Positions 16,919-43,693 of a stretch of DNA of 47,667 nt are shown piece after piece (the first letter of the stretch is position 1; every line of letters begins with the position of its first letter). The stretch is from Bacilli bacterium (GTDB lineage: Bacteria; Bacillota_I; Bacilli_A; RFN20; CAG-826). A model generated the notes under the pieces. The model was not told the DNA's origin and did no database searches. It was given only the letters and a program-made list of their open reading frames with translations. The stretch is from contig JAILEX010000001.1 in the NCBI GenBank assembly GCA_024687185.1, forward strand, positions 1 through 47,667, in the 5' to 3' direction. The position numbers and the translations under genes were made by a program.

Positions 16919-18346
16919 TCAGGAAGAGGACTTCATTCTCCTTTTGTCTTCATACATCGTCGCGTCGGCGCGTTTGAAGGTATCCTCGAAGTTATTGTCG
17001 TGCTCCTTATCGAAATACGCGGTGCCTACGGCCGCGAAGATAGGCGTGGAATAGGCGCTTTCCAAAGCGTTGTTCAATTCCTTTTCAAGCCTATCGATGT
17101 CCTTGCAGTTCTCCTGCTCGCTTACGACGAGGAATTCGTCCCCGCCTACGCGGTAGATAGAGGAATTCGGGAAGATGGATTTGATGACCTCGCTTAGGGC
17201 GACGATAGTCTCGTCGCCTTTTTCATGTCCATAGGTATCGTTGATTTGCTTTAGCTCGTTTAAGTCGATCATGGTAAGGGCAAAATCGGCCTTGCCTTCC
17301 TTGATCTTGTCGTTTAGCTCGACTTCCTTTTCGAAGTAGGCCCTCTTATTGCCAACCCCGGTCATCGCGTCAATGTCGGCGATATGCTTCATCTCGTCGG
17401 CCTTCATCTCCGCGGAAAGGAGGTCGGCGATGTATTTGTTGAGGTCGCCTTCCATCTTCTTCATGGAGTTGGAGAGATCCTCGATCTCGTCGCGGGTATG
17501 GATATCGATTTTGCTGAATTTATCGAAGTTCTCATTGGCGCCGCTAGTATATTCGTTGGCGACTTTGGTAAGGCTTCTAATGGGTCTAATGATAAGTAGC
17601 GACACCAAAAGGAAGCCCGCCATGGTGGAGGCGACGGCGAGTCCGCCAAGCAAGAAGGCGAGGTTTGCGATGTCCGCGGATTCCTTAGCGGTGATCTCGT
17701 CCATGGAAAGCTCGACCATCGCAAAAGCGATGACATCCTTCTCGTTTTCGTCATAGATCGGGCGGCTTACGCTAACTAGATAGCCGTATTCCGCGGTATT
17801 GGTGATTTCCGGGGTGAAGCCCGTATCCATATGGTCTTTGACGGTCATGTCGCTTTCGCTGAATTCGTCGAAGCTGCCAGGCAGACACCTTTCCTCGATC
17901 GGGGAATCGTCGACGAGGTAAACGAGCCTATTGTCCTTTAGATCGGCATAGGCGATATAGGTGTATTTGGCTTCGTTTTTCGAATGGAATACCTCGATTT
18001 GCTTAAGGATCCTTTGATATTCGCTGCTAGAGGGGATGTTGTTGAATTTGGCGAGGTAGGCGAGCCATTCCGGGCTATCCCAGCCTTCGTTGCTGACCTT
18101 TTGCTCCTCGGGGATGGAGTCGTATTTCTCCTTCACCGCGGTTTGGACGGTCTTAACGTCGTTTAGATCCAAGAAGATGCCAAGGGTATCGGCGAGATGG
18201 GTGGCCTCCTCGATATAGTGGGATCTTGTTATGTCGATTAAGACGTTGGAAGAGAAGATGACGGCGACGGTGCTGACCATCGATACCGAAAAGAGGAAGG
18301 CAAGAAGCGCTTTGGCCCATAATGGAAACCTGGTTTTCCTTTTCAT
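16919..18346 (-). CDS. Membrane diguanylate cyclase: TM, extracytoplasmic sensor, TM, HAMP-like, GGDEF
   Basis: MKRKTRFPLWAKALLAFLFSVSMVSTV; second TM LAFLLGGLAVASTMAGFLLVSLLI followed by IRPIRSLTKVANEY; DAMTGVGNKRAYFEKE; RVGGDEFLVV. Start at 18346 preferred over 18493, which overlaps the riboswitch. Confidence 0.92.
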   Translation of the reverse strand: MKRKTRFPLWAKALLAFLFSVSMVSTVAVIFSSNVLIDITRSHYIEEATHLADTLGIFLDLNDVKTVQTAVKEKYDSIPEEQKVSNEGWDSPEWLAYLAKFNNIPSSSEYQRILKQIEVFHSKNEAKYTYIAYADLKDNRLVYLVDDSPIEERCLPGSFDEFSESDMTVKDHMDTGFTPEITNTAEYGYLVSVSRPIYDENEKDVIAFAMVELSMDEITAKESADIANLAFLLGGLAVASTMAGFLLVSLLIIRPIRSLTKVANEYTSGANENFDKFSKIDIHTRDEIEDLSNSMKKMEGDLNKYIADLLSAEMKADEMKHIADIDAMTGVGNKRAYFEKEVELNDKIKEGKADFALTMIDLNELKQINDTYGHEKGDETIVALSEVIKSIFPNSSIYRVGGDEFLVVSEQENCKDIDRLEKELNNALESAYSTPIFAAVGTAYFDKEHDNNFEDTFKRADATMYEDKRRMKSSS

Positions 18347-18374
18347 TGTTTTTGTCCCCCTTATTGAAATAAAA

Positions 18375-18399
18375 GCCGATGCGAGGACGTTGCACCGGC
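18375..18399 (-). terminator. Riboswitch terminator hairpin
   Basis: On - strand GCCGGUGC-aacgtcctc-GCAUCGGC (one G-U) followed by UUUUAUUUC; its 5' arm overlaps an alternative GGUGCAAC:GUUGCACC pairing (18389-18396 with 18418-18425). Confidence 0.7.
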
Positions 18400-18417
18400 G
18401 GGTCGAATACAAAAAAA

Positions 18418-18490
18418 GGTGCAACTGGCTGTCTAGAAACCTAGACCCTCTAGCTTTGCGTCGCCGGATCACTCCGGTTTTGCCGTCTAT
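18418..18490 (-). ncRNA. c-di-GMP-I (GEMM-I) riboswitch aptamer upstream of a GGDEF gene
   Basis: On - strand GACGGCAAAACCGGAGUGAUCCGGCGACGCAAAGCUAGAGGGUCUAGGUUUCUAGACAGCCAGUUGCACC: GCAAAACC, P2 capped by GNRA (GUGA), hallmark GACGCAAAGC, P3 hairpin, AGCCAG. Confidence 0.88.
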
Positions 18491-18491
18491 C

Positions 18492-18518
18492 ATTATATAG
18501 GCACCATTCTTATTGAAA
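18492..18518 (-). promoter_or_regulatory. Sigma70-type promoter for riboswitch/GGDEF transcript
   Basis: On - strand TTTTCA-16-TATAAT directly upstream of the aptamer. Confidence 0.6.
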
Positions 18519-24218: not shown

Positions 24219-25508
24219 ATGACAGATTATTCCGCGATCACAATCCTTATCTGCATCCTCATGGTCGCCATGGCGGTCCATGTTTTGACTTACTCTGGGT
24301 TCAACAGCAGACAAAAGGCCTGGTTCGCCCTGACCTTTTTCTCCATCACCTTCTGCTCCTTGGCCGAATTCGCGGTCCATTGTGGCTATTACAATAAGAC
24401 CTTCGCCATTCCCTTGACCATATTGACGGTCATCCAATTCTCCCTCTCCCCATGCCTTGCCATGCTTTTCGCTGGCGCTTTGGGATTCCGCTACCAAGGA
24501 AAGATCGCCATAGCCTTCTTCGCGTTCAACCTAATCATCGAAATCATCGGTGCGCCCTTTGGGGCCGTCTTCTCCTTCAACGCGGACGGCTATTTCAGGG
24601 GCTCTTACTTCCTGCTATACGAAATATCCTATATCGGTAGCCTAGGCTATTTGATCATCGTTTTGTTTTTGGCGGGGAAAAGGTTCAAAAGAAGGGATTT
24701 GCCAACCATCATCAGCATCTTCCTCATCTTGCTTGGCGGCATCATCCCGATGACCTTCTTCAGTATCCATGTCGCCTATGCGGCCATAGGCATAAGCTCC
24801 GCGGTTTGCTACATCTACTATAACGATTTAGTGCAGCAAGACATCAAGGAAGAGCTTGTGAAGGAACAAAAGAGGATCAGCGATATGCAAGAGCATACGA
24901 TCTCCGGCCTCGCCAGCCTTATCGAAAGCAGGGACACCGAAACGGGCGGCCACATCGTAAGGACAAGCGCCCTGGTGAAGATGGTCGCGGAACAATCGGT
25001 CGAGGAAGGGCTATACAAAGAGACCCTTACCCCGGAATTCATCTCCAGGCTTTGCACCCTCGCCCCGATGCACGACGTCGGCAAAATCGTCGTCTCGGAC
25101 CAAATACTAAAAAAGCCCGGAAAGCTTACGAAAGAGGAATTCGAGGCCATGAAGAAACACGCCGCGATGGGCGGCAAAGTCGTTAGGGAGATCCTTAGCG
25201 GCATCACCGACGAAGACTATTTGAAATTCGCTTCCGACATAGCGACTTACCACCACGAAAGATGGGATGGCACAGGCTATCCTAGCGGTTTGTCCCAAGA
25301 GGCCATTCCCCTCTCGGCCAGGATCATGGCGATCGCCGACGTCTATGACGCCTTGATCTCCAAAAGATGCTATAAGGAAGCGATGACCTTCACCGAGGCC
25401 ATGAAGACGATGGAAGAGGAATCGGGCACCCATTTCGATCCAAAGCTCATCGCTGTCTTCCTTAAGAACAAGGAAAGCTACCGCCACTTCTGCCAAAGGC
25501 CAGAATAG
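24219..25508 (+). CDS. Membrane-sensor HD-GYP domain protein (putative c-di-GMP phosphodiesterase)
   Basis: Multiple N-terminal TM helices; RDTETGGHIVRTS, MHDVGK, HHERWDGTGYPSGL, IADVYDAL HD-GYP motifs. Confidence 0.92.
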   Translation: MTDYSAITILICILMVAMAVHVLTYSGFNSRQKAWFALTFFSITFCSLAEFAVHCGYYNKTFAIPLTILTVIQFSLSPCLAMLFAGALGFRYQGKIAIAFFAFNLIIEIIGAPFGAVFSFNADGYFRGSYFLLYEISYIGSLGYLIIVLFLAGKRFKRRDLPTIISIFLILLGGIIPMTFFSIHVAYAAIGISSAVCYIYYNDLVQQDIKEELVKEQKRISDMQEHTISGLASLIESRDTETGGHIVRTSALVKMVAEQSVEEGLYKETLTPEFISRLCTLAPMHDVGKIVVSDQILKKPGKLTKEEFEAMKKHAAMGGKVVREILSGITDEDYLKFASDIATYHHERWDGTGYPSGLSQEAIPLSARIMAIADVYDALISKRCYKEAMTFTEAMKTMEEESGTHFDPKLIAVFLKNKESYRHFCQRPE

Positions 25509-27035: not shown

Positions 27036-28430
27036 ATGGACTCCGAGAAAAAATTCGACAGACGAAAAGGCATCTCTCTCAAAATCATTGGATGGGTAAC
27101 TACTTTAATAGCCTCCATCGTTTCCGCAGTCCTCGTCATCTCCCTTATCAATTTAGGCACAACCTACCATAAAGTCACTTCCACAACCGCCGAATACATG
27201 GCATGGAAAGATACCGCCATGGGCCTTTCAAACGGCTCGGACGAACTAACGAACCAAGTCCGTTCCTATGTCGTCACGGGACAAGTCAAATATAGGGATG
27301 GCTATTTCACCGAAGCCGCCTCGGGAAGAAGGGAAAAAGCCGTCGAAACCATCAAAAACTACTTAGAGGAAACAACGGTCTATAACGATTTGCAGGAGGC
27401 ATTAAACGCTTCCATCGACTTGATGAACAGCGAATATTACGCCATGAGGCTTATGGTCGTATGGTCCAACGAGGATATGGCCGGAGTCCCCGAGGAGGTG
27501 AAAAAGGTCGTCTTGTCCGAGGAAGACGAAGCCCTAATCGCCACGGCCCAAAGCGACCCATCCAAATGGGAAGGCATCAAAGACCGCGCGGAGGGAATCG
27601 TATATGGCGATGCCTACGCCAATTCGAAAACCAAGATCCTAGGCAACGTCGACAAAGCGGTAAGCACGCTTGATGGCATGTTGCAGAATAGCGTTTTGGA
27701 AGCCTCCAGCCAAATGAAGATCATCATCGTTTTCCAATCCGTATTCATTGGCATCAACATCTTCTTCGTCGCCGGTTCGATATTATTGATGTACATCTAT
27801 TTGCTCCGCCCGATCCAGGATGCCGTTACCCGTCTCAATAACGACGAGGCAGTCGAGATAAGAAGCGTAAAGGAATACCGCTTCCTCGCCTGGACCTATA
27901 ACAAAATCAGGGAGCAGAACAAGCACCATAAGGAGTCGCTGCTATACCAAGCCGAGCACGATAAGCTTACGGGCCTATTAAACCGTACCGGCTATGACGA
28001 CGTCTTCCAGAAGATCGATTTGAACCACGTCCTTTTCATCTTGCTTGACGTCGATAAATTCAAAGACGTGAACGACGAATACGGCCACGCCGCGGGCGAT
28101 AAGGTCCTAAAAAGGGTCAGCGACACGATGCTATTCTATTTCCATGACGACAATTGCCACGTCTTCCGCATCGGCGGGGACGAATTCGCCATCATCATGG
28201 AAGGCATACAGGAAGATAGGGTCGCGGAAATGGTCGAACGCTGCAAACATATGAACACCGAACTAAAGGGCGGGACCCAACAACTAAGGATCTCCCTTTC
28301 CATCGGCGTCGCCCTAGGCAACGACCTAGACACCACCGATACCCTCTTCAAAAAAGCCGACCTTGCGCTTTACCACACGAAGAACACAGGACGCGGCAAA
28401 GTCGCATTGTTCGACGAATCCATGCGCTAA
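27036..28430 (+). CDS. Membrane diguanylate cyclase with extracytoplasmic helical sensor and GGDEF domain
   Basis: Two TM segments flanking a helical sensor; HDKLTGLLNRTGYD, DVDKFKDVNDEYGHAAGDKVL, RIGGDEFAII. Confidence 0.93.
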   Translation: MDSEKKFDRRKGISLKIIGWVTTLIASIVSAVLVISLINLGTTYHKVTSTTAEYMAWKDTAMGLSNGSDELTNQVRSYVVTGQVKYRDGYFTEAASGRREKAVETIKNYLEETTVYNDLQEALNASIDLMNSEYYAMRLMVVWSNEDMAGVPEEVKKVVLSEEDEALIATAQSDPSKWEGIKDRAEGIVYGDAYANSKTKILGNVDKAVSTLDGMLQNSVLEASSQMKIIIVFQSVFIGINIFFVAGSILLMYIYLLRPIQDAVTRLNNDEAVEIRSVKEYRFLAWTYNKIREQNKHHKESLLYQAEHDKLTGLLNRTGYDDVFQKIDLNHVLFILLDVDKFKDVNDEYGHAAGDKVLKRVSDTMLFYFHDDNCHVFRIGGDEFAIIMEGIQEDRVAEMVERCKHMNTELKGGTQQLRISLSIGVALGNDLDTTDTLFKKADLALYHTKNTGRGKVALFDESMR

Positions 28431-28583: not shown

Positions 28584-28612
28584 TTGACTACGGGTGCGCG
28601 CATAAATAAAAT
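28584..28612 (+). promoter_or_regulatory. Near-consensus sigma70-type promoter driving the riboswitch/surface operon
   Basis: TTGACT (28584-28589), 17-bp spacer, TAAAAT (28607-28612), about 13-15 bp before the aptamer. Confidence 0.8.
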
Positions 28613-28624
28613 TTCAAACGTTAA

Positions 28625-28690
28625 AAGCAAAACCAGAGCGATCTGGTGACGCAATGCTACAAGGGTCTTCTCGAAGATAGCCAGCTGCCA
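28625..28690 (+). ncRNA. c-di-GMP-I (GEMM-I) riboswitch aptamer, variant core, upstream of surface-protein operon
   Basis: AAGCAAAACCAGAGCGAUCUGGUGACGCAAUGCUACAAGGGUCUUCUCGAAGAUAGCCAGCUGCC: GNRA (GCGA)-capped P2, GACGCAAUGC (consensus GACGCAAAGC), P3 hairpin, AGCCAG. Confidence 0.85.
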
Positions 28691-28692
28691 AC

Positions 28693-28715
28693 AAACCAGA
28701 TGAAACTGGTTTTAT
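28693..28715 (+). terminator. Candidate riboswitch expression-platform hairpin (weak terminator)
   Basis: AAACCAG-atgaaa-CTGGTTT then TAT; short U-tract; same CTGGTTTT can pair with AAAACCAG inside the aptamer (28629-28636). Confidence 0.5.
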
Positions 28716-28733
28716 GACAAAGGAAGGTACGAG

Positions 28734-28823
28734 ATGATCAAAGAGACGAGTAAAGGAAAAACTAGGGGATACGAAATCCTTTTTTCATGCGCGCCGCTTC
28801 TATTCTCCAAGAAACTAACCTAA
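28734..28823 (+). CDS. Possible 29-aa leader peptide ORF
   Basis: AAGGAAGG RBS-like sequence 8 nt before ATG; MIKETSKGKTRGYEILFSCAPLLFSKKLT stop; lies between the riboswitch and the 28837 gene. Confidence 0.35.
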   Translation: MIKETSKGKTRGYEILFSCAPLLFSKKLT

Positions 28824-28836
28824 GGAATTAACCACT

Positions 28837-30264
28837 ATGGGAAGGTTTGGGGAAAAAATCAAAGGCTTGTTCCAAAAAGGTGACGAAAATAACCGTAACC
28901 TTGGAAAGCTTTTTGGTATCCTCGGACTAATCGTAGGCAACGTCATGGCCGCCAGCGCGATGACGATTGCGTGGTTCAATATCATCAACCGCGAAGCCAA
29001 CATCGACACGGTGGCAGGCGACCTCAACGTCGAAATAAAGAAGGTCTCCGCCTATAAGTACATCTACCCCTATTATTCCAACTCCGCCGAATTCATCAAT
29101 TACGATGGGGAAGGGGAGGTTCTTTCCTTTGTTATGGAGGACCAAAATTACCCCGAGGCGGATTTCGAAGACAGCATAACCATAACCCTAGGCGACCCCT
29201 ATAGCGGGACCTATATAACATCCGGGACCGGAACGAAGGAAAGCATCCTTTATCCTACCGGCAGCTCCTTCTTCTACTACCTTCTCGGCGATTCGGTATT
29301 TTCCGGCACAACAAGCGAATGGTCCATCGACAATTCCGTTCCCTTTTCATATATGGCGGCCCCCACGGCAAATAACCCCGCCATACTCGATAACGTAGTC
29401 GTTTCAGCCGGGGCCGAATTCACCCTTTTCGATGCAAGGACGGCCACGGCGGGAAGTTGCAATTACCTAAATTACGCAAGCGCGGATGCACCGAGCGAAG
29501 GCAAAAGCAAACGCTTTGAGATCCTTTCGAACAAAACGCTCCGCTGCCTTTCCGCCGGAATCTATAGCTTTTCCTACACCGGGTCATCTCTTACGATCAC
29601 CCTCCACAACCGCAATAACGACGCCGTCATCGGAAGCAACATCCTCGATCCCACGAAGATTAGTCTGGATTATTATGCAACAGGCCAATCCGGAACACTG
29701 AACGACTATGTCCCCACAGCGATAAAAAACCAAAACACAATGGTGGTCCTAGACGTTGAATTAGCCTATAGGAACGCAAGCGAAATAGATGCGGGATTAC
29801 AAGTAAAAAGGCTGGCGAATACCGCTTTTGACTATACCGATAGCGAAAACACGGTAGGCTATATAAACGAACAACAGCAAAACGCATTGAAGGCATCCGA
29901 CTTTTATGCGTTTTACCCATGCTTTAGCGAAGGGTCGCTAGGAAGCGCGAGCGAAGTATGGGAAGCCCTACACCAGAAAAAGACCAACGATACGGTCAAC
30001 CAGGTGAATATATTCAGCAAATTCGATGGCACGGGTACCGTTATCGACGCACCTTTATATAGCGACACCTTGACGGTAAACGCAGGCAAAATCACCCTCG
30101 ACGCATCTTCTAACAGCACCTATCACTGCTATATCGCCATTGATTATGACTATATCCATACCCTGTATTTCCTAAATGAGAATAGACTTGGAAAAACCTA
30201 TCGTCTCGATAGGGATTTCGGCTTTTATTTCACGGCTACCCAGCATATGGAGGCATCCGAATGA
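28837..30264 (+). CDS. Surface protein with TasA/SipW-type-like N-terminus
   Basis: MGRFGEKIKGLFQKGDENNRNLGKLFGILGLIVGNVMAASAMTIAWFNIINREANIDTVAGDLNVEI: basic leader, TM, then xAWF...AGxLxVxI as in SipW-dependent proteins. Confidence 0.6.
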   Translation: MGRFGEKIKGLFQKGDENNRNLGKLFGILGLIVGNVMAASAMTIAWFNIINREANIDTVAGDLNVEIKKVSAYKYIYPYYSNSAEFINYDGEGEVLSFVMEDQNYPEADFEDSITITLGDPYSGTYITSGTGTKESILYPTGSSFFYYLLGDSVFSGTTSEWSIDNSVPFSYMAAPTANNPAILDNVVVSAGAEFTLFDARTATAGSCNYLNYASADAPSEGKSKRFEILSNKTLRCLSAGIYSFSYTGSSLTITLHNRNNDAVIGSNILDPTKISLDYYATGQSGTLNDYVPTAIKNQNTMVVLDVELAYRNASEIDAGLQVKRLANTAFDYTDSENTVGYINEQQQNALKASDFYAFYPCFSEGSLGSASEVWEALHQKKTNDTVNQVNIFSKFDGTGTVIDAPLYSDTLTVNAGKITLDASSNSTYHCYIAIDYDYIHTLYFLNENRLGKTYRLDRDFGFYFTATQHMEASE

Positions 30265-33200
30265 AAAAGGGTGCCATGTTTACAAAACTCGCAATAGGGG
30301 GAAGCCTATTCCTAATCGCGGTTTCCATAGCGGTTTCCTCGTCTTTGGCCTATTACATCAAGAACGCCTCAAGCAACGGTTCCTATGGCGAAATCGGATT
30401 AAGGTCCTATTTCGAACGTGGGTCTGGCTCAGAAGGGGAGCCCTATGTCATAACCAGGCCTAGGCACATGTATAACCTTTCAAAACTTCAGTCTTTGGGC
30501 GTTTTCAGCGAGAAAACCTATTTCCAGCTTGGACTAGTCGGATTGGCTGGCTCCAACGAAAACCTAGGCCCCCTATGCTATGTAAGCGATAGCTCAAACG
30601 AGGTAACCCCGTTCTTAGACATGTCTGAATCGAGCTATGATCACGAACCGATTTATTCCATCGGATCGGAAGCCGTTCCGTTCTATGGCGAATTCGACGG
30701 GCAGGACATCGAAATCAAAAACCTCAATGTCTATGCGGACCCAGAGGATTCCGGGTTATTCGGCTATACGGCCTCGGGTTCTTCCGTACATGACCTTTTC
30801 CTTTCGAACATCACCATCAACACGATGGGCTATACAAGCGCATACGAAAGCCTATATGGGCCTAATAGCACGCTAAACGAAACCGTGACATTCGTCTATA
30901 ACCTCACAGGTGAATCCGATGGGGCCACAATAGTTTTCGACCACGACTCCACCGAATACGACATCGTCGCCTTTACAGCCGATAGGTCGAACCAAGGGTT
31001 TGTACATGACGAAAACGCAGGCGACCGTGTCCCGACCCTAACCTACACAACCACCAATTCCAATTACTCCTATGCGGTTAACGTGTCCGGAGCCCTATTG
31101 TCCAATTCAAACGGCACAATCTCCCCCAACCTAACAGAGTTATTCGCCTTTTTCAAACAACAGATGGACCAGGAAGACGCCTCTTATCCGATGCAGGCCT
31201 CGACCTCCGTTTCCATCGTCGCCTACAACCTCGATAGCTATGGTCAAACTCACTCGAAATCGCTTTTGACCCTATCATACCTATTCACCATGGAGTCCGC
31301 CGATGCGACCGGAATCGGGATGGAGGTTCGCGTCGGATCCCAACACACGAACAACATAGGACTCGTAATCGGGCATTGCGACGGCTCGATCAAGGATTGT
31401 TACGTATATAATGGCGCATTCAAAATGAACAATGGCTCGACATTGTCCGGAGGGACCTATACGGCGCTAGAAAACCGCTCAAGCCTAGGATTGGTCGGAT
31501 TGGTTGGAAATACCGTTAGGAACTTGGTGGCAGAAGAATCGGGCGGTTCGACCACGGCCGGGAAAAACGTTGGCGTTTTGGACTTTACGACGATTTATGA
31601 CGATATCATCGACTCCTCTTCTTTCTCTAGTAGCGAAAGCATCGGCGCAGGAGGCATTTCCTATTCGCCAAGATCAGGAAACAAATATACCAATTACCTA
31701 AGGAAGAACCTCAGTGACCAATACGTGACGGAATCCGAGAATACCGTTGCCTTCGCCGGTCAGAAGATCATCAAAAACACCGATCTAGGCGTTTTTACGG
31801 TAGGAACGGACTATTACGCAAATAACGGCACGGGAGCTTCCAATCGACTTGATTCCTCTATCGTCAGAAAGGAAGAGACGGATGTCGACGGCGGGTACTA
31901 TCTCTACTACGCAACCGGCGAATATCAAAGAAGCGCCGGCTATGACTATCGCAAAAACTATAAACAGTGGTACCGAAGCAACAGCTATCCCAGCACGGGC
32001 GACGAGATACCACAGATTTTCCAAGGCCGACATCTTCCCAAGGCCGAAGAAACCACATGGGAGAGTTTTGCGTATAGGGAATTGCACCAAAACTATATTT
32101 TCCGTTTCAAGCTCGATCCCTATTACCGAAAAACAAGGGGCTTGTACTTCTCGGATTTGGATACCTCTTCCATCGGCGGATCCTTCCTCGCAAAATACTT
32201 CCGTTATAAATTGGTTGACCAAAATAGCCAACCCATACCCATAGGAAGCAGAAATAGCGGCGTTATGTTGCGCGATAGTTTTGGCAACGAAATCAAAAAA
32301 CTGATCTCGAGTTTTTCTCTTCCCGACCAAACGGGCAGCAACACGAACATCATCTGCATCAATAACTCTGCGGAACTTTATCCGGCGGCCAATACCGTTA
32401 ACTTCGAAATCAAAACGGAATATGCGAACATCACCGTAGTCGCAAGACCGGAGGATGCTTATAACGATGGCGGGGACGACGACGGGGCATCGATCGGCGT
32501 TTACGAATTGACGGATTCCCCAAATGAAAGCGGGAACAGCAAAATTTTGCAAAAGCAATCCTACGACCCAAAATATGCTTTCTTCATGCCCGGGGAAAAG
32601 CATTTGAGCTATTTTGACTACAACGTAATAAACGGGTCTGGCAAAATCGGCACCTATGATAGCAGCGGCAACTTCACGGAAGTTTCCTCTTCCGCCGCCC
32701 CCTCTTACGCTCCGCGGGCAAACGGGGCCGAAGCCGAATATAAGGCGGGGACACGACTATTCGTCCACACATTTAAATTGCCGCAAGGGCGATATTGCCT
32801 TTCTTCCGCCGACAACAGGGCCAAAATCTATTACATCTGCGCCCAGGGCCAAAGCGAGGGGCAAATCGAATTCAACGATACGATCTATGCCGGAAGCAAT
32901 TCCGTCGAATCGGTCGATTTCCTAAAAAGCCCGCGATTCGATCCGGACACGAAGGCAGAACTCGTTACCCTAGATGGAGTCAGTACATATAATCCGGCGG
33001 GAAACGAGTTGCTCAATAAACGTTTATATGTGACCTTCCTGGATAGCGACAGGTCGAGCTTCGCTTCTTCTCCGGCCCCTTCGCAACTAACGTTCCTATA
33101 CGATCCAGAAAGCGCAAAGTTCCTGATATCCTCTTCCCAGCCTTCGGCAATGACCCATATCGCAGTCAGCAATTACGACCACTCGCTTGCCGGGGACTCG

Positions 33201-33272
33201 AAATCGCTCACGGTATCGCTAATGGGAAACGAAAGTTCAGGAAGCACGTTGTTCTATTCCTACGAGGCATAA
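30261..33272 (+). CDS. Large secreted/surface protein (1003 aa), function unknown
   Basis: N-terminal TM then LAYYIKNASSNGSYGEIGLRSYFERGSGSEGEPYVITRPRHMYNLSKLQ; ATGA overlap with upstream gene. Confidence 0.65.
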   Translation: MKKGAMFTKLAIGGSLFLIAVSIAVSSSLAYYIKNASSNGSYGEIGLRSYFERGSGSEGEPYVITRPRHMYNLSKLQSLGVFSEKTYFQLGLVGLAGSNENLGPLCYVSDSSNEVTPFLDMSESSYDHEPIYSIGSEAVPFYGEFDGQDIEIKNLNVYADPEDSGLFGYTASGSSVHDLFLSNITINTMGYTSAYESLYGPNSTLNETVTFVYNLTGESDGATIVFDHDSTEYDIVAFTADRSNQGFVHDENAGDRVPTLTYTTTNSNYSYAVNVSGALLSNSNGTISPNLTELFAFFKQQMDQEDASYPMQASTSVSIVAYNLDSYGQTHSKSLLTLSYLFTMESADATGIGMEVRVGSQHTNNIGLVIGHCDGSIKDCYVYNGAFKMNNGSTLSGGTYTALENRSSLGLVGLVGNTVRNLVAEESGGSTTAGKNVGVLDFTTIYDDIIDSSSFSSSESIGAGGISYSPRSGNKYTNYLRKNLSDQYVTESENTVAFAGQKIIKNTDLGVFTVGTDYYANNGTGASNRLDSSIVRKEETDVDGGYYLYYATGEYQRSAGYDYRKNYKQWYRSNSYPSTGDEIPQIFQGRHLPKAEETTWESFAYRELHQNYIFRFKLDPYYRKTRGLYFSDLDTSSIGGSFLAKYFRYKLVDQNSQPIPIGSRNSGVMLRDSFGNEIKKLISSFSLPDQTGSNTNIICINNSAELYPAANTVNFEIKTEYANITVVARPEDAYNDGGDDDGASIGVYELTDSPNESGNSKILQKQSYDPKYAFFMPGEKHLSYFDYNVINGSGKIGTYDSSGNFTEVSSSAAPSYAPRANGAEAEYKAGTRLFVHTFKLPQGRYCLSSADNRAKIYYICAQGQSEGQIEFNDTIYAGSNSVESVDFLKSPRFDPDTKAELVTLDGVSTYNPAGNELLNKRLYVTFLDSDRSSFASSPAPSQLTFLYDPESAKFLISSSQPSAMTHIAVSNYDHSLAGDSKSLTVSLMGNESSGSTLFYSYEA

Positions 33273-33284
33273 AGGAGGCAAACT

Positions 33285-36200
33285 ATGAAAATGAAACCAA
33301 TCAAAAGTTTATTCGCGTTATTATTTGGGATTTTTATGCTCCCAATGATCGCTTCTTCTTGTGCCATGGAAGGCGATCCTTTGGCGGGAAGGAACGTAAA
33401 GCATTTTCTTAGCGGCAACAAAGTCGCGACGGAAGGCAATTGGGTCTACTATGGACTAGAAAACAACAACGGCGACGTCACTAGCTATGCCGTTTCCCTA
33501 ACGGATTCGGCAAAAAACGGGACAGGAGCCATTTCTATCCCGAGCACCTATAACGCTTTGCCCGTCACCGGCATTTGGGAAGGGGCCTTCCGTGGCAGCA
33601 ACGCAACCAGCATCACGATTCCAGATAGCATAACGGTCATAGACTATGAAGCATTTATGTATTCAAGGGTCACTGAAATCGCGATACCTTCCTCGGTGAG
33701 CCTAATCGGGGAAGGGGCTTTCTATAGTTGCCCAAACCTAACCAACGTCCGCATCAATAACAGCAACGAGACGGGCTCTGGATATGCCAATGTCTGCTCC
33801 GCCACCGGAGGCGAGGAAAGCGAAGACATCCTATATTCCAACTTGCAGACTATTCCGGCGTTTTGCTTTTTCAAATGTTCGAAATTGGTAGAACTGTCGT
33901 TGCCGGCTTCAATCAAAGAGGTAAGTTATGAGGCGTTCCGTGGATGTGCAAGGATGAAATCCATGCTTTCGTTTAAAAACCTAGACATCATTCGCGCTCG
34001 CGCATTCGAAGGGTGCGTCGCGCTTACAAAGGTGTATATCCCCAACTCCTTTTTCGAGAGCAGCGCCAACACCATCGAGCCATTGGCCTTCAATTATTGC
34101 AGTTCCTCGCTCCATTTCATCTTCGCCTGTGAAGCAGCGACGGCCACCACATGGATTTCGAACCATCCCAATTGGGGTTGGTATAACGAATTGGGGTCTC
34201 CAGCCACATATAGCTATGTCTATAATTCCACTAGCACAAGCAACGTGGAAACAACGCAGGCAAGCACCACCTACACCAACGATTGGACCTATAACACCGA
34301 ATTCAATAGCGACACCAACGAAAGCGAGGTAACCATTACTTCCTATGTTGGAACCACCGTGGACGAAAATAACGAAAACATTACCTTCATCACGGTCCCC
34401 AATGAACTCGGTGGCTACCCCGTAAGAAAAATAGAAACCACCGCGTTCAACTCGATCAAAAGATTCATAAAGCGCATTTTCTTGCCAACTACGCTGCAGC
34501 GAATCGAAGTATCGATGTTCAATGCGGACTACAAAGAACTTTTGGTAGTGGACTCCAACGAATCCTGCCAAGAAACCGAGAACCCCATAAATCCCCGCAT
34601 CGATTTGTCAGACCTAACAGACTTAGAGGAAATAAGGGATTTTGCCTTTTGCAATATACCGAAGGCATCAAGCATCCGAATCATCCACCTTCCCTATCAC
34701 CTGAAAATGGTTGGTAAAGAAGCCTTTAGCAAACGCAACCAAAGCGATACCAACCCACGTCTACGCCATGTCAAGGAGTTCGAATGGGACTACAACGAAG
34801 CAGAGGCGCAACTTGAGTTCATCGGAACGGATTGCTTTTTCAAAATGGGGCTTTGGGATGAAAAGAAAATCAATGGAAGCAGTTGCGACTTTGGCGGTCA
34901 AAACCTTAACCACGATAAGAAATGGGAAACCCAATATATCCACGAAAACCATATCGACGCAGACGGCAACGTCAATTACACCCCATCCACCATTATATTT
35001 CCAAAGACGTTTAAGGGTTTTGGCTACCCTAACGCTGCTACGGCCGCGCTATATGACGGCACCTACGACAAAGGGGCGGCCCATACCTTTGCGGGCTGTC
35101 CTTTATTGGGAAACGTCATTTTCAAAGGCGGAGAAGGAAGCAATGATTTGTTTTTGCCCATCCAAACCTTCGCGTTCAACGAATCCCTTCGAAACGTGGT
35201 TTTTGAAGAAAGGCCAGGGAAGACCATCACGTTTTTAACTGACGATGGAAAATATTCCGAAGTGTGCATCGGCTGCAGCGCGGGAAGGTTCCATAACGAT
35301 TTCCGCGGGGATCCCGGCCTTCAAACCCTCGTCCTTCCTAACCAACAAACCGTTTTATGCATTCAAAGGCTAGCGTTCCAGGGCAATTCGCGTGGAGTGA
35401 TATACATGTCTGGCTCCGCCAGCAACTCTACCTTTATGAGAAGCTCAACCGTGACCGACTTAGACGCCTTTAACAGCAACCCCATTCCGAATAAGGCCAT
35501 TTCCTATGCAACGGGATGGCGTTCGATAGGCGACGAAAGCTGGTTTAACTATGGCGACAAAAAAGCTTATTTGGGTTATTGCTTTGCGGAAAGCGAAACG
35601 ACGAAAAGCGACCAGTACCTAAATTCCTATTTGCTAGACCAATCAATGCCCGTATATGAAAACATTCACTATAAGCAAACCTTTATCGTTAATAATGGAA
35701 CGGAAAACGTGGAAGTCACCGCCGAGGTAGGAAGCGATAACACCAAGGAATTCGTGGTCAAGGACAAATGCGCCTTCGTCACCGGCACAAGCACCGGTAA
35801 AGCCACAATGACCAATTACCTTTATGACCGTTGGGATTCCACCTTCACCGGAACGGCAAGGGTTCCCGCAACCGTAAAAGGCTATGATGGCACCACCTAT
35901 ACCGTAAACAAAATCGGCGAATCTGCCTTCACCGCCTGTTTCTCCGATGGCATCGACCAAGCCAGCAAGGAAGACTATAAGGACCTCACAACCGTTTTAA
36001 TGCCAAACGCAATCACGGAAATAGGTGACTATGCGTTCCTCAGAGCCTATGGGGTCGAGGAAATTACAGGATATACCCCCGATGCTAACGACGACCCTAC
36101 CGGAGATGCCCTTAACGCCAATTATACGATGCCAACGAGCCTAATATGGATTGGAAAAAACGGGCTTTCCTTCTGCAACGTCAAAAAAATCTTAGGGTTA

Positions 36201-38123
36201 CGAAACGATGTGCGTTTCTACGAAAACGTCACAACGGGAAACGACAAGGACATGACAAGCGTATTTTCCAATAATCTCTCACTAAGAGTCATTTCCTTTT
36301 TATCGGTCAAAAATTACTTCACGACAACCTATATTTCCGAAAGCGGGGAAACCTATACCTCCGCTTTATACGCGAACATAAGCGGCGTCAGTATAAATAC
36401 AAACGGCGGTAGATTATTGCTCATCCTAAATCGAGACAATGCCGACGTTAATAAACCTAGCGCCGATTACACCTATACCGATGGAGTTGGAACCTTCGAT
36501 CTAGGGTACCATAGTCACTCAGCCAATCGTAAATTCCTATATGGCGCAACCAGAATGGGCTATTGGATCAAAAAGCTAAAAATCGCAAGCAAAACGCCAA
36601 GCAACCAAGCATTTTTCTCCGCCGTATGTAACAGAAGAATTGTGAACGAGGTTATGACCGTAACGGATTCCTATATTTATTTATTTGAGCCTATAAGGGA
36701 CTATAGGGACAACGTTTGTGATCTAACTGCCGCAGAAGGCAACATATTTAGTTTGCAGGCCTATGCTTTTGCGGGATGCGAACAATTCGATACCATTTAC
36801 CTCAACCAAAATGAAGGCGGCACCCTTCCAAACGGAGTATTCTCAGGCGCGGAAAACATAACCTATGTTACCCCTGGGCCAAACGGAGATGGAGATAATT
36901 ATATAGGGGAAAGACTTGTCGATCCAACCGTCCTTGACTTATCCAACACCAAATATGCGGGTATTGGTTCAGAAACTTTTAGAGATAATGAAATTTTCGA
37001 TACCGTAAGAATTCCAAATAACGTATCGAGCTTCACAATTGGAAGCGGCGCCTTCCGAGATTGCGACACCCTCACTACTTTGGATTTAAGGACGGCCAAA
37101 CAAGGATGCACCATCAACATCAATGACAGTGCGTTCAAAAATTCTGGCTTAACGACAATCTACTGGCCCACCAAGAGCGGTTGTACGGTCAATATCACCG
37201 GAGGTTTCCGCGAATGTCCAAGTCTAACAAACCTTTCCTTCAGCAGTACCGTCACAACAAACATTGGCGAATATGCTTTTTATAGCTGTTCCGGTTTGAC
37301 ACGCATCGATTTCACGGGTCTAGTCGGAGAAGGAATCAGCGGTTATGACGTCGCAGATGGCAAAGCATCTATCGGCAATTATGCTTTCCAGAACTGCAAA
37401 AATCTTTATAACAACGACGGCGATACCCTTATTATCCCAGAAAACGTCGTTGCCATCGGTAAACAATCATTTAAATCTAGCGGCATTAAAAGCGTAGAAT
37501 TCAAAGCAAAAACAATGCAATTTTCTAACGAGAGCTTCGATAACTGCACTTCGATGAGTCGCGTATATTTCTCCTATAACGGAGCAGACGCAAACGAAAG
37601 TAATTGGGATTTAGTAAGCGATATTAATATCCAAAATGACCAGTTCAATACCTTCTCGGATTGCGGCGACAACCTAACAACCATCATTTTGCCGCCGGCA
37701 TTCGATCTTTATAACGCTGCAAAGCACTCCATCGTATGGCAAAGCAAAAAGGTCTTGTTCTATATCAGAAGAACGATTAGGTCCACTGACAGAGAGCCCG
37801 AAACGGATTGGAGGTTAAGGGAGGGCACCGATGCCGGACCCGCACAATGCCATTTCCAGGTATCCACCATAGCCGACGTTTTAAATAGTTCCTACACTGA
37901 CACCACTTACACAACCGCAATCGCGGACTACGTCATATCCCAAGACGATTTTTACTGGTATCTTCAAAATGGTGATGCCGTTCGCTTAGGCCAAATTGAT
38001 AAAACTGAGATGGAAGGCGATGGCGTATATTCCGTTTATTTTATTCTTAATGGCGTCGGAACCGGTAAACTCCACGGCGGGGATGGCACACTCTATCCGG
38101 TTGGTCGAACCTTTTCAGCATAA
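33285..38123 (+). CDS. Large BspA-type leucine-rich-repeat (LRR_5) surface lipoprotein, 1612 aa
   Basis: Lipobox-like MIASSCAME; repeats such as SITIPDSITVIDYEAFMYSRVTEIAIPSSVSLIGEGAFYSCPNLTNVRI; no LPXTG seen at the C-terminus. Confidence 0.82.
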   Translation: MKMKPIKSLFALLFGIFMLPMIASSCAMEGDPLAGRNVKHFLSGNKVATEGNWVYYGLENNNGDVTSYAVSLTDSAKNGTGAISIPSTYNALPVTGIWEGAFRGSNATSITIPDSITVIDYEAFMYSRVTEIAIPSSVSLIGEGAFYSCPNLTNVRINNSNETGSGYANVCSATGGEESEDILYSNLQTIPAFCFFKCSKLVELSLPASIKEVSYEAFRGCARMKSMLSFKNLDIIRARAFEGCVALTKVYIPNSFFESSANTIEPLAFNYCSSSLHFIFACEAATATTWISNHPNWGWYNELGSPATYSYVYNSTSTSNVETTQASTTYTNDWTYNTEFNSDTNESEVTITSYVGTTVDENNENITFITVPNELGGYPVRKIETTAFNSIKRFIKRIFLPTTLQRIEVSMFNADYKELLVVDSNESCQETENPINPRIDLSDLTDLEEIRDFAFCNIPKASSIRIIHLPYHLKMVGKEAFSKRNQSDTNPRLRHVKEFEWDYNEAEAQLEFIGTDCFFKMGLWDEKKINGSSCDFGGQNLNHDKKWETQYIHENHIDADGNVNYTPSTIIFPKTFKGFGYPNAATAALYDGTYDKGAAHTFAGCPLLGNVIFKGGEGSNDLFLPIQTFAFNESLRNVVFEERPGKTITFLTDDGKYSEVCIGCSAGRFHNDFRGDPGLQTLVLPNQQTVLCIQRLAFQGNSRGVIYMSGSASNSTFMRSSTVTDLDAFNSNPIPNKAISYATGWRSIGDESWFNYGDKKAYLGYCFAESETTKSDQYLNSYLLDQSMPVYENIHYKQTFIVNNGTENVEVTAEVGSDNTKEFVVKDKCAFVTGTSTGKATMTNYLYDRWDSTFTGTARVPATVKGYDGTTYTVNKIGESAFTACFSDGIDQASKEDYKDLTTVLMPNAITEIGDYAFLRAYGVEEITGYTPDANDDPTGDALNANYTMPTSLIWIGKNGLSFCNVKKILGLRNDVRFYENVTTGNDKDMTSVFSNNLSLRVISFLSVKNYFTTTYISESGETYTSALYANISGVSINTNGGRLLLILNRDNADVNKPSADYTYTDGVGTFDLGYHSHSANRKFLYGATRMGYWIKKLKIASKTPSNQAFFSAVCNRRIVNEVMTVTDSYIYLFEPIRDYRDNVCDLTAAEGNIFSLQAYAFAGCEQFDTIYLNQNEGGTLPNGVFSGAENITYVTPGPNGDGDNYIGERLVDPTVLDLSNTKYAGIGSETFRDNEIFDTVRIPNNVSSFTIGSGAFRDCDTLTTLDLRTAKQGCTININDSAFKNSGLTTIYWPTKSGCTVNITGGFRECPSLTNLSFSSTVTTNIGEYAFYSCSGLTRIDFTGLVGEGISGYDVADGKASIGNYAFQNCKNLYNNDGDTLIIPENVVAIGKQSFKSSGIKSVEFKAKTMQFSNESFDNCTSMSRVYFSYNGADANESNWDLVSDINIQNDQFNTFSDCGDNLTTIILPPAFDLYNAAKHSIVWQSKKVLFYIRRTIRSTDREPETDWRLREGTDAGPAQCHFQVSTIADVLNSSYTDTTYTTAIADYVISQDDFYWYLQNGDAVRLGQIDKTEMEGDGVYSVYFILNGVGTGKLHGGDGTLYPVGRTFSA

Positions 38124-39558: not shown

Positions 39559-39657
39559 ACAATTCTTTCTAAAATCATAAACCTCGCTATTTATTTTTAG
39601 TCAATTTTAAAGTTGGCCTTTTATGATGATGTTCAAATAAGGAGGGTCAACCTATTT

Positions 39658-41370
39658 ATGAAAAGCAAACTATTACTAGCCCTGGCATCATCTGCATTAT
39701 TAATGTCTTGTGGCTCAACTTCTGGAGGTTCTGGTTCTACCTATACCTCTGGCTCCACCGGCACAAATAGCGCCTCCGGCCAAACGTCGGCGGTATCAAT
39801 TAGCGAAGATGATGTCGATAGCGACTTCACCCTAGTCGATGAATCCAATAACGCGATTAGCGGCACTAGTGGCGTATATAAAATCACCTCGGCCGGCACT
39901 TATACCGCTAGTGGAAAACTTAGCGGACAGATCTATGTCGATGCCGCGGACGCGGAAGTCGAGCTCGACCTAAATGGCGTCTCCATTTCTAATTCTAGCG
40001 TCTCACCCATCTTCGTCGCGGCCTGCGCCGATTTCGACTTAAAGGCCTTAAGCGGCACAAGCAACTACATCTATGATAACCGTACCACCGATTATTCCGA
40101 ATCTGAGGATGACACCGTTGGCAAAGGCGCGGTCTATGTCGCCGATGGCGATTTGAAGATCAAAGGCACGGGTACCTTATCCGTCACTTCTTTAGCCAAT
40201 AGCGGAATCCATGGCAAAGACAATGTCACCGTCAAAAACGTCACGATGCTCGTAAAGGCCGTCAATAACGGTATTAAAGGTAATGACAAAGTCACGATCG
40301 AAGAGAACCCAACTCTTGGTATCGTCGCCGGGAACAATGGCATCCGCACCTCTAGCAGCGACACGGGCAGCTCCGCGCAACATGGCTATATTTATATCAA
40401 CGGCGGTACCATCACCATCAACTCCTATGGCGATGGCATCGACGCGGAATACGCGGTCGAATTCGGTACCTCCGAAGATGATGATGGCAATACCTGCACC
40501 CCAGTCGTTGATATCTATACCAACAAATATTCCTCCTACTCCTATAGCGAGGTTTCCTCTAGCGCCAAAATCAATTACGCCTATGGCGGTCCTGGTGGCG
40601 GCAACCAGGGTGGCGGAAACCAAGGCGGCGGATTCGATGGCGGCGGAATGTCCGGCGGATCCTCGGCCGAAAAGGCGGATGAATCCGCGAAGGGCATCAA
40701 AGCCAACGAGGCCATCAACATCACCGCCGGCGAAATCTTCTGCTACACCTATGACGACGGCATCCACGCCAATAGCGGCGAATCCTTGGAAAACGGCTCC
40801 ACCTCTAGCGGCAATATCACCATCAGCGGCGGCGAGATCAGCCTCAAGGCAAGCGATGACGGCCTCCATGCGGACGGCACCCTCAACATCAAAGGAGGCA
40901 CGATCAATATCGCGGAAAGCCATGAAGGCGTCGAAGGCAATATCATCAACATCTCCGGCGGCGAGACCACGGTCTACGCTTCCGATGACGCGGTCAACGC
41001 CTCTAGCGCCCTCAATATCTCCGGCGGTAGGGTCGATTCCAATATGCCCGCTTCTGGCGATGTGGACGGCTTAGATAGCAATGGTTCCTTCACCATTAGC
41101 GGCGGCACCATCATAACCCGTGGCCCCAATAGCGAAATGGCTGCCCCAATCGACGTGGACGGCAACGTCAAGATGACGGGTGGAACCCTCATCGTCGTCG
41201 GCTATTGCCCCTCCATCTCCACTAGTCTAACCAAAACCTCTTCCTCTAGCGGTCTTTCTAGCGGCTCCCACACCGTCACAATTGGCGGATCGACCATCTC
41301 CTATAGCAACGCCTATAGCTATAGCGGTTCCACGACCGTCTATGGTTCTGGCACGGCAACCGTTAAATAA
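39658..41370 (+). CDS. Carbohydrate-binding domain-containing lipoprotein (Cthe_2159/DUF4353-like beta-helix)
   Basis: Lipobox LLMSCGST; ...LSGQIYVDAADAEVELDLNGVSISNSSVSPIFV...NSGIHGKDNVTVKN...NNGIRTSS; Gly-rich insert GGPGGGNQGGGNQGGGFDGGG. Start at 39658 preferred over 39613. Confidence 0.8.
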   Translation: MKSKLLLALASSALLMSCGSTSGGSGSTYTSGSTGTNSASGQTSAVSISEDDVDSDFTLVDESNNAISGTSGVYKITSAGTYTASGKLSGQIYVDAADAEVELDLNGVSISNSSVSPIFVAACADFDLKALSGTSNYIYDNRTTDYSESEDDTVGKGAVYVADGDLKIKGTGTLSVTSLANSGIHGKDNVTVKNVTMLVKAVNNGIKGNDKVTIEENPTLGIVAGNNGIRTSSSDTGSSAQHGYIYINGGTITINSYGDGIDAEYAVEFGTSEDDDGNTCTPVVDIYTNKYSSYSYSEVSSSAKINYAYGGPGGGNQGGGNQGGGFDGGGMSGGSSAEKADESAKGIKANEAINITAGEIFCYTYDDGIHANSGESLENGSTSSGNITISGGEISLKASDDGLHADGTLNIKGGTINIAESHEGVEGNIINISGGETTVYASDDAVNASSALNISGGRVDSNMPASGDVDGLDSNGSFTISGGTIITRGPNSEMAAPIDVDGNVKMTGGTLIVVGYCPSISTSLTKTSSSSGLSSGSHTVTIGGSTISYSNAYSYSGSTTVYGSGTATVK

Positions 41371-42648: not shown

Positions 42649-43551
42649 TTACGATAAGGTGAAAACGAGGTTATTGAGCCTTAGGTTTTCATAGCAGTTG
42701 CTATTGCCGTTGTCATTTTGGACGTAATAGCCCGTATTGGAATCAAGCTCATAGAAGGTTGATTCGGCATTGGAGAATTCGATGGTGAAGAAAAGTATCT
42801 CCCTACCTTCTTCGCTTGCCCCTTGGTTAACGATGGAAAGGGGTAACGTGGGAGGCGTGGCGGATTCGGGATAGGTTTCCGCATAGGCAAAGCGATCAGT
42901 TAAGGAGGAATAATAATCCCTTCTATAGTCGGCGTAGGCGCTTTGGATGTCCGCAGTCACGCTTTCGGGTGAGGACATGGGGGACACGGAATAGGCCTGT
43001 CCGCGGATATCGATCGCCCAGGTCAAGGAAACGTTTTTCTCCGCGCTTACCTTGGCGGAGTTGGAGGTTGTTTCGGAGAAGGAAGATAGGCTAAATCCGG
43101 ATACGCTGCCACTTGTGATAACCAGGGCATAGGTAAGTTTATGGGCGGGCCAAAGTTCTTCGATGGAGGTTGGGTTATAATCCACTCCTCCCCTAGTGAT
43201 GGTCTGGACGCTGCCGTTATTCGAATAGTTGATCTTTGTGAAGGTGGCCGCGTTATTGGTATAGGAAACCTCATATCCGGCGAATTTATTGATTCGATTG
43301 TTCCAATTTCCGTCTTTGATGACCGCATTCACGCTAAAAGTGTCTAAGAAATACAAATCGTATTCGATTCCACCCGGGCTTTGGATGGTGAAGGAAGACA
43401 CTTCCGTCGTGACACTTCTATTAGAAACGAACCAAGCCATGGTGCCGCTAGTCACGCCACCGACGCCAAGCAAGATGAGGAAGCAATTCAACAAAACGGC
43501 AAAAGTCGCCCTATTGGCCTTGCTTTGTCCTTTTCTCTTCGCTTGTCCCAT
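42649..43551 (-). CDS. TasA/SipW-type-like surface protein under c-di-GMP riboswitch control
   Basis: MGQAKRKGQSKANRATFAVLLNCFLILLGVGGVTSGTMAWFVSNRSVTTEVSSFTIQ: basic leader, TM, TMAWF motif, beta-rich remainder. Confidence 0.6.
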   Translation of the reverse strand: MGQAKRKGQSKANRATFAVLLNCFLILLGVGGVTSGTMAWFVSNRSVTTEVSSFTIQSPGGIEYDLYFLDTFSVNAVIKDGNWNNRINKFAGYEVSYTNNAATFTKINYSNNGSVQTITRGGVDYNPTSIEELWPAHKLTYALVITSGSVSGFSLSSFSETTSNSAKVSAEKNVSLTWAIDIRGQAYSVSPMSSPESVTADIQSAYADYRRDYYSSLTDRFAYAETYPESATPPTLPLSIVNQGASEEGREILFFTIEFSNAESTFYELDSNTGYYVQNDNGNSNCYENLRLNNLVFTLS

Positions 43552-43594: not shown

Positions 43595-43622
43595 AAAAAA
43601 CAGCCACCGCATTTGGCAGCTG
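43595..43622 (-). terminator. Riboswitch terminator overlapping the aptamer 3' end
   Basis: On - strand CAGCUGCC-aaaugc-GGUGGCUG (G-U wobbles) followed by UUUUUU. Confidence 0.8.
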
Positions 43623-43680
43623 GCTATCTAATCGAGTAGACCCTTGTAGCTTTGCGTCGCCAGGTTACCCTGGGTTTGCT
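43614..43680 (-). ncRNA. c-di-GMP-I (GEMM-I) riboswitch aptamer
   Basis: On - strand AGCAAACCCAGGGUAACCUGGCGACGCAAAGCUACAAGGGUCUACUCGAUUAGAUAGCCAGCUGCC: GNRA (GUAA)-capped P2, GACGCAAAGC, P3, AGCCAG. Confidence 0.9.
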
Positions 43681-43693
43681 TTTCACAAGAAAT

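What the first reader, a model, noticed from the sequence alone, without database searches (positions are those of the whole stretch)
28625..28690. Variant c-di-GMP-I aptamer core (GACGCAAUGC) controlling a 9.3-kb surface operon
The element has the GNRA-capped P2, P3 and AGCCAG of GEMM-I, but the near-invariant GACGCAAAGC reads GACGCAAUGC, while the other two copies in this window keep the consensus. Known GEMM variants with core changes have altered ligand preference (e.g. cGAMP-type GEMM-Ib, though at a different position). The change could tune affinity, alter specificity or mark decay. It heads a 475/1003/1612-aa surface operon.
Basis: partly seen in the sequence, partly recalled or inferred. 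Interest (0 to 1): 0.75.

Follow-up and report, generated by a model that had tools for sequence, protein, structure and literature searches.

The report
c-di-GMP riboswitch with two core changes

Summary
The element is a real c-di-GMP-I (GEMM-I) aptamer: RF01051, 28616-28692 (+), 48.5 bits against a cut-off of 35. U49 (28655) is also real and rare. It occurs in 2 of 153 sampled Bacilli copies, and a strict pattern finds 12 stretches in about 85,000 genomes. It is not a known ligand contact. It turns the A-U pair at the base of P3 into U·U, recurs in unrelated phyla mostly with the normal G20, and is kept in a similar operon of another species (G002). Decay or a new ligand through U49 is therefore unlikely; a mild affinity effect is plausible.

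In sampled relatives, A20 copies sit before surface-type genes (25/28) and never before a GGDEF gene (0/28), whereas 12/25 G20 copies do. The own genome has 11 canonical GGDEFs, EAL and HD-GYP enzymes, and no Hypr GGDEF was found. The best reading is a c-di-GMP switch of the A20 grade controlling a surface operon. cGAMP is the minority alternative: one relative has a Hypr-like GGDEF and only A20 aptamers.

The parts
28584..28612 (+). candidate sigma-70-type promoter, TTGACT-17-TAAAAT; would start the RNA at about the 5' end of the aptamer
   Evidence: consensus match 10/12; about 1 such match expected by chance in the scanned 501 bases
28616..28692 (+). c-di-GMP-I (GEMM-I, RF01051) aptamer, A20/A47/C92 grade with U49
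   Evidence: cmscan 48.5 bits, complete model
28626..28626 (+). A at the Vc2-G20 position, the c-di-GMP/cGAMP selectivity base
   Evidence: model position 11; 28/53 copies in the relatives sample also have A; A20G changes cGAMP selectivity to c-di-GMP in Gmet_0970 (PMC6456294)
28632..28647 (+). P2 hairpin ACCAGA-GCGA-UCUGGU
   Evidence: alignment
28655..28655 (+).
   Evidence: model position 40, marked as non-standard pair
28686..28686 (+). U90, Rfam pairing partner of position 49; the pair is U-U here
   Evidence: U kept in 11 of 12 natural U49 elements
28688..28688 (+). C92, the ligand-pairing C, consensus kept
   Evidence: alignment; position by my count
28693..28712 (+). expression-platform hairpin AAACCAG-AUGAAA-CUGGUUU that mimics P2; its arms can pair with the P2 strands
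   Evidence: strand-swapped fold -25.9 versus bound-like fold -23.5 kcal/mol; P2 fully broken in 53 of 2000 shuffles
28734..28823 (+). 29-codon leader ORF with SD AAGGAAGG (28720-28727); its stop TAA (28821-28823) overlaps the SD-like TAAGGA before p475
   Evidence: read from sequence; function not tested
28837..30264 (+). 475-aa AWF-type secreted or anchored protein, first large gene of the operon
   Evidence: N-terminal hydrophobic segment ending MTIAWFN; ortholog under an A20 aptamer in G011, 39% over 493 aa; no Pfam or NCBIfam family
30261..33272 (+). 1003-aa surface-type protein
   Evidence: orphan; homologs under A20 aptamers in G002 and G011
33285..38123 (+). 1612-aa BspA-type leucine-rich-repeat protein
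   Evidence: PF13306 E 9.8e-62
27036..28430 (+). membrane GGDEF protein directly upstream, canonical diguanylate cyclase signature (GHAAGD, RIGGDEF)
   Evidence: PF00990 E 1.1e-31; D at the PleD-344 position
24219..25508 (+). HD-GYP-type phosphodiesterase
   Evidence: PF13487 E 1.8e-31
43612..43690 (-). second A20 GEMM-I copy, before the 300-aa AWF protein 42649-43551; terminator overlaps the aptamer (ON-type)
18417..18494 (-). G20 GEMM-I copy before the GGDEF gene 16919-18493 (feedback)

Best explanation
A working c-di-GMP-I riboswitch of the A20 grade that couples cellular c-di-GMP to a surface-protein operon (28837-38123). Shown by sequence: complete aptamer, A20, U49-U90, operon content, canonical c-di-GMP enzymes in the genome, and the split of A20 (surface genes) and G20 (GGDEF genes) copies in relatives. 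Inferred: the ligand is mainly c-di-GMP; A20 and the lost terminal A-U pair of P3 lower affinity or discrimination, so surface genes respond at another signal level than the G20 feedback switches on the GGDEF genes; binding locks P2/P3 against a competing fold in which the P2-like platform (28693-28713) captures the P2 strands. By analogy with the other A20 copies it is probably an ON switch. U49 itself is a tolerated P3-base change, not a ligand switch.
For: Complete RF01051 match. U49 makes a non-standard pair with a conserved U, here and in 11 of 12 natural U49 elements from several phyla; it is the only form found in one Gallionellales genome, and is present before a similar operon in G002. 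Contact lists for the cGAMP riboswitch name A41 and A42 (A47/A48) but not the next A. A G20A-type mutant of the C. difficile Cd1 aptamer shows no large effect on c-di-GMP binding (PMC9262584). All 11 full GGDEFs of the own genome have Asp at the guanine-reading position; 6 EAL matches; HD-GYP. Three same-genus genomes with no GGDEF match also have no GEMM-I match; the 22 other genomes, the own one among them, have both. G009, G010 and G015 carry A20 aptamers with only two GGDEF matches each, all with Asp. A20 versus G20 by GGDEF target: 0/28 versus 12/25, Fisher p 2e-5. Many A20 copies have a terminator made from the aptamer 3' strand, hence ON-type.
Against: No binding or expression data. The own genome is 87.8% complete, so a Hypr GGDEF could be missing. 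A20 is the published hallmark of cGAMP-selective GEMM-I, and G022, whose two aptamers are both A20, has a GGDEF with both Hypr marks. The terminator of this copy is weak compared with its ON-type relatives (-6.7 versus about -15 to -30 kcal/mol), so ON versus OFF is uncertain. 'Surface' rests on N-terminal segments, the LRR protein and SipW-like neighbours in a relative. The 53 copies are related, so the Fisher test overstates independence.
Confidence: 0.68

Rival explanations
1. A cGAMP (GEMM-Ib) riboswitch: A20 makes it read 3',3'-cGAMP made by a Hypr GGDEF that is missing from the assembly or unrecognised.
For: A20 is the published switch position (PMC6456294). G022 has Ser at the PleD-344 position, Ser at the cross-dimer Arg position and a GGDEF motif, which fits the Hypr marks, and only A20 aptamers. 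G002 has Asn at 344 and His at the cross-dimer position in the GGDEF just upstream of its U49/A20 aptamer.
Against: No such enzyme among the 11 full GGDEFs here; A20 aptamers occur in G009, G010 and G015 with only two, canonical, GGDEFs; no SMODS cyclase match above cut-off in the 25 genomes searched; no non-Asp enzyme among the GGDEFs of G021 that were read, although its only aptamer is A20; EAL enzymes abound.
Confidence: 0.14
2. A decaying aptamer: U49 marks loss of function after the operon was rearranged.
For: The terminal P3 pair is lost (about 1.5 kcal/mol in the folding model); weak terminator; a short leader ORF that could be a gene remnant.
Against: The other near-invariant positions apart from A20 are intact (48.5 bits); U49 recurs and is kept in G002 before a similar operon; U49-only genome in Gallionellales.
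Confidence: 0.1
3. U49 itself gives a distinct ligand specificity.
For: It is next to A47/A48, which stack on and contact the ligand.
Against: U49 occurs with G20 in 9 of 12 pattern hits and beside A49 copies in the same genome; the position is outside published contacts; the two pocket-variant families that Rfam separates (-GGC, -UAU) appear from their consensus to be named for positions 20/47/92, not 49.
Confidence: 0.04

Closest known systems
c-di-GMP-I riboswitch (GEMM-I, Rfam RF01051)
   Same: Complete aptamer with P2 GNRA loop, P3, GACGCAA core, AGCC and C92; in the 5' leader of surface-type genes; c-di-GMP enzymes in the genome.
   Different: A instead of G at position 20, U instead of A at position 49, and almost no P1.
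GEMM-Ib cGAMP riboswitches of Geobacter (Gm0970, Gs1761/pgcA, pilM)
   Same: A at the selectivity position; ON-type logic in surface or pilus genes; gene context similar in kind.
   Different: Lower P2 is G-C/C-G here, while Gm0970 as I recall its sequence has C-G/U-G; Bacilli host, whereas a 2022 paper places the class in gram-negative bacteria (PMC9262584); no Hypr GGDEF found in this genome.
Cd1 c-di-GMP riboswitch of Clostridioides difficile
   Same: P1-poor GEMM-I aptamer whose position-20 equivalent tolerates A without large loss of c-di-GMP binding (PMC9262584).
   Different: Natural base there is G; different regulatory logic and gene.
Rfam c-di-GMP-I-GGC (RF03167) and c-di-GMP-I-UAU (RF03168)
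   Same: Pocket-variant families of the same clan; some natural U49 elements score best with these models.
   Different: The window copy is A-A-C at 20/47/92, so it belongs to neither.

Membership tests
c-di-GMP-I riboswitch (RF01051) | covariance-model score above the curated cut-off over the whole model | tested here: met
   48.5 bits versus 35, model 1-87
c-di-GMP-I riboswitch (RF01051) | G at Vc2 position 20 (consensus) | tested here: not met
   A at 28626; the consensus is not absolute: A in 28/53 copies of relatives and 18/100 copies of the wider sample
c-di-GMP-I riboswitch (RF01051) | A47 and C92 ligand contacts | tested here: met
   A at 28653, C at 28688 (alignment)
c-di-GMP-I riboswitch (RF01051) | selective binding of c-di-GMP | not testable with these tools
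   needs in-line probing or ITC
GEMM-Ib (cGAMP) riboswitch | A at position 20 | tested here: met
   28626
GEMM-Ib (cGAMP) riboswitch | a cGAMP synthase (Hypr GGDEF, Ser at 347/348) in the same organism | tested here: not met
   11/11 full GGDEFs have Asp; genome 87.8% complete, so not final
GEMM-Ib (cGAMP) riboswitch | at least 100-fold preference for cGAMP | not testable with these tools
   needs binding assay

The most novel reading that the evidence does not exclude
The A20 GEMM-I copies of this gut Bacilli genus form a cGAMP-responsive or mixed cGAMP/c-di-GMP regulon for surface proteins, separate from the G20 c-di-GMP feedback loops on GGDEF genes, with Ser- or Asn-bearing GGDEFs (G022; G002, G017, G007) as synthases. 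This would be cGAMP riboswitch signalling in a gram-positive lineage.
Probability: 0.13. Interest if true: 0.78.

Novelty: new variant of a known kind. Interest (0 to 1): 0.42.

Why it matters
It shows that a striking base change in a conserved core can be a peripheral one while the decisive change is easy to overlook. It also points to a genus in which two grades of one riboswitch class are divided by gene function: G20 in front of signal-making enzymes, A20 in front of surface proteins. That makes it testable whether A20 means a second signal (cGAMP) or a different threshold for the same signal.

Tried and rejected
Compensation of U49 by a matching change at position 90: rejected, U is kept in 11 of 12 U49 elements (one has C). 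U49 compensated by the platform (CAUUGC in G002 can pair with GCAAUG): rejected as likely chance and explained by the terminator stem; absent in the window copy. Perfect link between non-Asp GGDEFs and A20 aptamers: rejected, A20 occurs where only canonical GGDEFs were found. Counts of A49 versus U49 in viral contigs: the search machine gave no answer. In the phylum of one U49 genome, every pattern match outside that genome itself had A49. The primary GEMM-Ib papers tried (Kellenberger 2015 by PMC id, and one DOI I believed to be Ren 2015) are not held. AlphaFold2 of the 475-aa protein from a single sequence was useless (pLDDT 35), so no fold search was made; no relative in the PDB.

Full report
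What is there. Rfam finds three c-di-GMP-I aptamers in the window: 28616-28692 (+, 48.5 bits), 18494-18417 (-, 50.5) and 43690-43612 (-, 56.4), all over the cut-off of 35. The finding's element is the first. Its core reads GACGCAAUGC at 28648-28657; the other two read GACGCAAAGC. The changed base, 28655, is model position 40 (A49 in Vc2 numbering, by my count). In the Rfam structure it is the first pair of P3, with the U at 28686, so A-U becomes U-U; cmscan marks the pair as non-standard. The folding model puts the cost at about 1.5 kcal/mol.

How rare is U49. Among 53 GEMM-I copies from the own genome and its relatives (same genus, a few of the same order) position 49 is A in 51 and U in 2: this one and G002:C30:60235-60310. 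Among 100 further copies from the wider group it is A in all (92 by script, 8 read by eye). A strict pattern with U49 finds 12 stretches in about 85,000 genomes: Chloroflexi, Deltaproteobacteria, Paenibacillus, Gallionellales (two in one genome), Actinobacteria and others, and G002 itself. The pattern is strict, so this is a lower bound. Eleven of the twelve keep U at the partner position, one has C; nine have G20 or score with G there and three have A20 or were read as A20 (L073 and L074 are A20 in the printed sequences, the rest G; the window copy itself is the third A20 case known to me). In a Deltaproteobacteria genome and in Paenibacillus the U49 copy sits beside A49 copies; in the Gallionellales genome both copies found are U49. 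So U49 is rare, has arisen several times, is not tied to position 20 and can be the only form in a genome.

Why U49 is unlikely to change the ligand. The ligand contacts listed for the cGAMP riboswitch (4YAZ numbering) are G8, A11, A12, U13, A14, C15, A41, A42, G74, C75 and C76 (PMC7288161; PMC6274999). A41 and A42 correspond to A47 and A48; the next A (A49) is not listed. The two Rfam pocket-variant families, -GGC and -UAU, appear from their consensus lines to be named for positions 20, 47 and 92; that reading is mine.

The same element has A at 28626, model position 11 (Vc2 G20); the 43690 copy has it too. In Gmet_0970 an A-to-G change at nucleotide 20 changes cGAMP selectivity to c-di-GMP (PMC6456294). 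In the C. difficile Cd1 aptamer, however, a G-to-A change at the equivalent base had no large effect, and the authors call it a selectivity factor rather than a hard filter (PMC9262584). So A20 alone does not settle the ligand.

Which signal is available. The own genome (87.8% complete) has 16 GGDEF matches, of which 11 are full domains, all with Asp at the PleD-344 position; 6 EAL matches; and an HD-GYP protein in the window. No SMODS-type cyclase passed the cut-off in the 25 genomes searched. Three same-genus genomes without a GGDEF match also lack GEMM-I (G001, G005, G016); the other 22 of the 25 genus genomes, the own one among them, have both. G009, G010 and G015 have an A20 and a G20 aptamer and only two GGDEF matches each, all with Asp. 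G014, also with two GGDEF matches carrying Asp, has two G20 aptamers, one of which closely resembles the A20 copy of G015. This points to c-di-GMP as the ligand in use, with a loss of discrimination or affinity in A20 copies. Of about 105 GGDEF domains read from genus members (not every match was fetched), five lack Asp: Ser in G022, Asn in G002, G017 and G007, Cys in G013, where no GGDEF motif was matched. The G022 enzyme has both Hypr marks named in PMC6456294 (Ser at 347/348, non-Arg at the cross-dimer position) and G022's two aptamers are both A20. This is the best lead for cGAMP in this group.

Division of labour. Of 28 A20 copies, 25 precede AWF-type genes and none a GGDEF gene; of 25 G20 copies, 12 precede a GGDEF gene (Fisher p 2e-5). 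The target classes come from a script (an A-W/Y/F-F/L/M motif near the N-terminus; GGDEF HMM hits downstream) and the copies are related by descent, so the p value is only a guide. Seven of the 12 G20 copies on GGDEF genes have GCTTTG, complementary to the core, downstream; with a terminator that does not overlap the aptamer this suggests OFF feedback. Many A20 copies have a strong terminator whose 5' arm is the aptamer's own AGCCAGCUGCC, which suggests ON. In G002 the cluster with A20 aptamers also holds a SipW-like signal peptidase (weak NCBIfam match, E 2.2e-6, below its cut-off), an EAL protein and several AWF/AWY proteins.

The window copy in its setting. A promoter-like site (28584-28612) would start the RNA at the aptamer, leaving almost no P1. 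The platform 28693-28712 is a hairpin resembling P2; its arms can instead pair with the two P2 strands. The strand-swapped fold is the minimum (-25.9 kcal/mol) and the aptamer-like fold with its local hairpin is close (-23.5); 53 of 2000 shuffled platforms also break P2 fully, so this is suggestive only. The terminator is weaker than in relatives, so the sign of regulation is inferred from relatives, not read here. A 29-codon ORF with a good SD lies between the aptamer and p475. The operon is p475 (AWF type), p1003, and the 1612-aa BspA-LRR protein. G002 has U49 aptamer, AWF protein, p1003-like, then a 1308-aa protein with a weak match to p1612; G011 has an A20 aptamer, a p300-like, a p475-like and a p1003-like protein. 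A 68,439-base contig named Bacilli bacterium RGIG3712 from goat rumen matches G002's contig in length, so the genus is probably ruminant-gut Bacilli.

Verdict. A real GEMM-I riboswitch of the A20 grade with a rare, recurrent and probably mild P3-base change, most likely tuning a surface operon to c-di-GMP. The ligand is the open question, and A20, not U49, is the base to test first.

Noticed in passing
G022:C57:2216-2668 (L225): GGDEF with Ser at the PleD-344 position, Ser at the cross-dimer Arg position and an intact GGDEF motif: a candidate Hypr (cGAMP) enzyme in a gut Bacilli genome whose two GEMM-I aptamers are both A20.
   Followed up: partly
G002:C30:60505-60960 (L219), G017:C6:55263-55730 (L218), G007:C7:27995-28456 (L305): GGDEF domains with Asn instead of Asp at the guanine-reading position; the G002 one lies just upstream of the U49/A20 aptamer and also lacks the cross-dimer Arg.
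   Followed up: partly
G070:C2:259425-259876: Four GEMM-I matches in tandem within 450 bases in a relative of the same class.
   Followed up: no
G000:C28:15786-15866 (L001) and G000:C109:17822-17902 (L002): Identical GEMM-I copies near contig ends; may be one locus split or duplicated by assembly, so the own genome may have 5 rather than 6 copies.
   Followed up: no
window 28734-28823: 29-codon ORF with a good SD between the riboswitch and p475; its stop overlaps the SD-like sequence of p475. Could be a leader peptide or a relic of a lost first gene.
   Followed up: partly
window 39613-41370: Large Cthe_2159-type carbohydrate-binding protein (PF14262, E 8.8e-62) downstream of the operon.
   Followed up: no
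window 18417-18494 (-): G20 aptamer before a GGDEF gene; the listed ORF start (18493) lies inside the aptamer, so the true start is probably further downstream.
   Followed up: no
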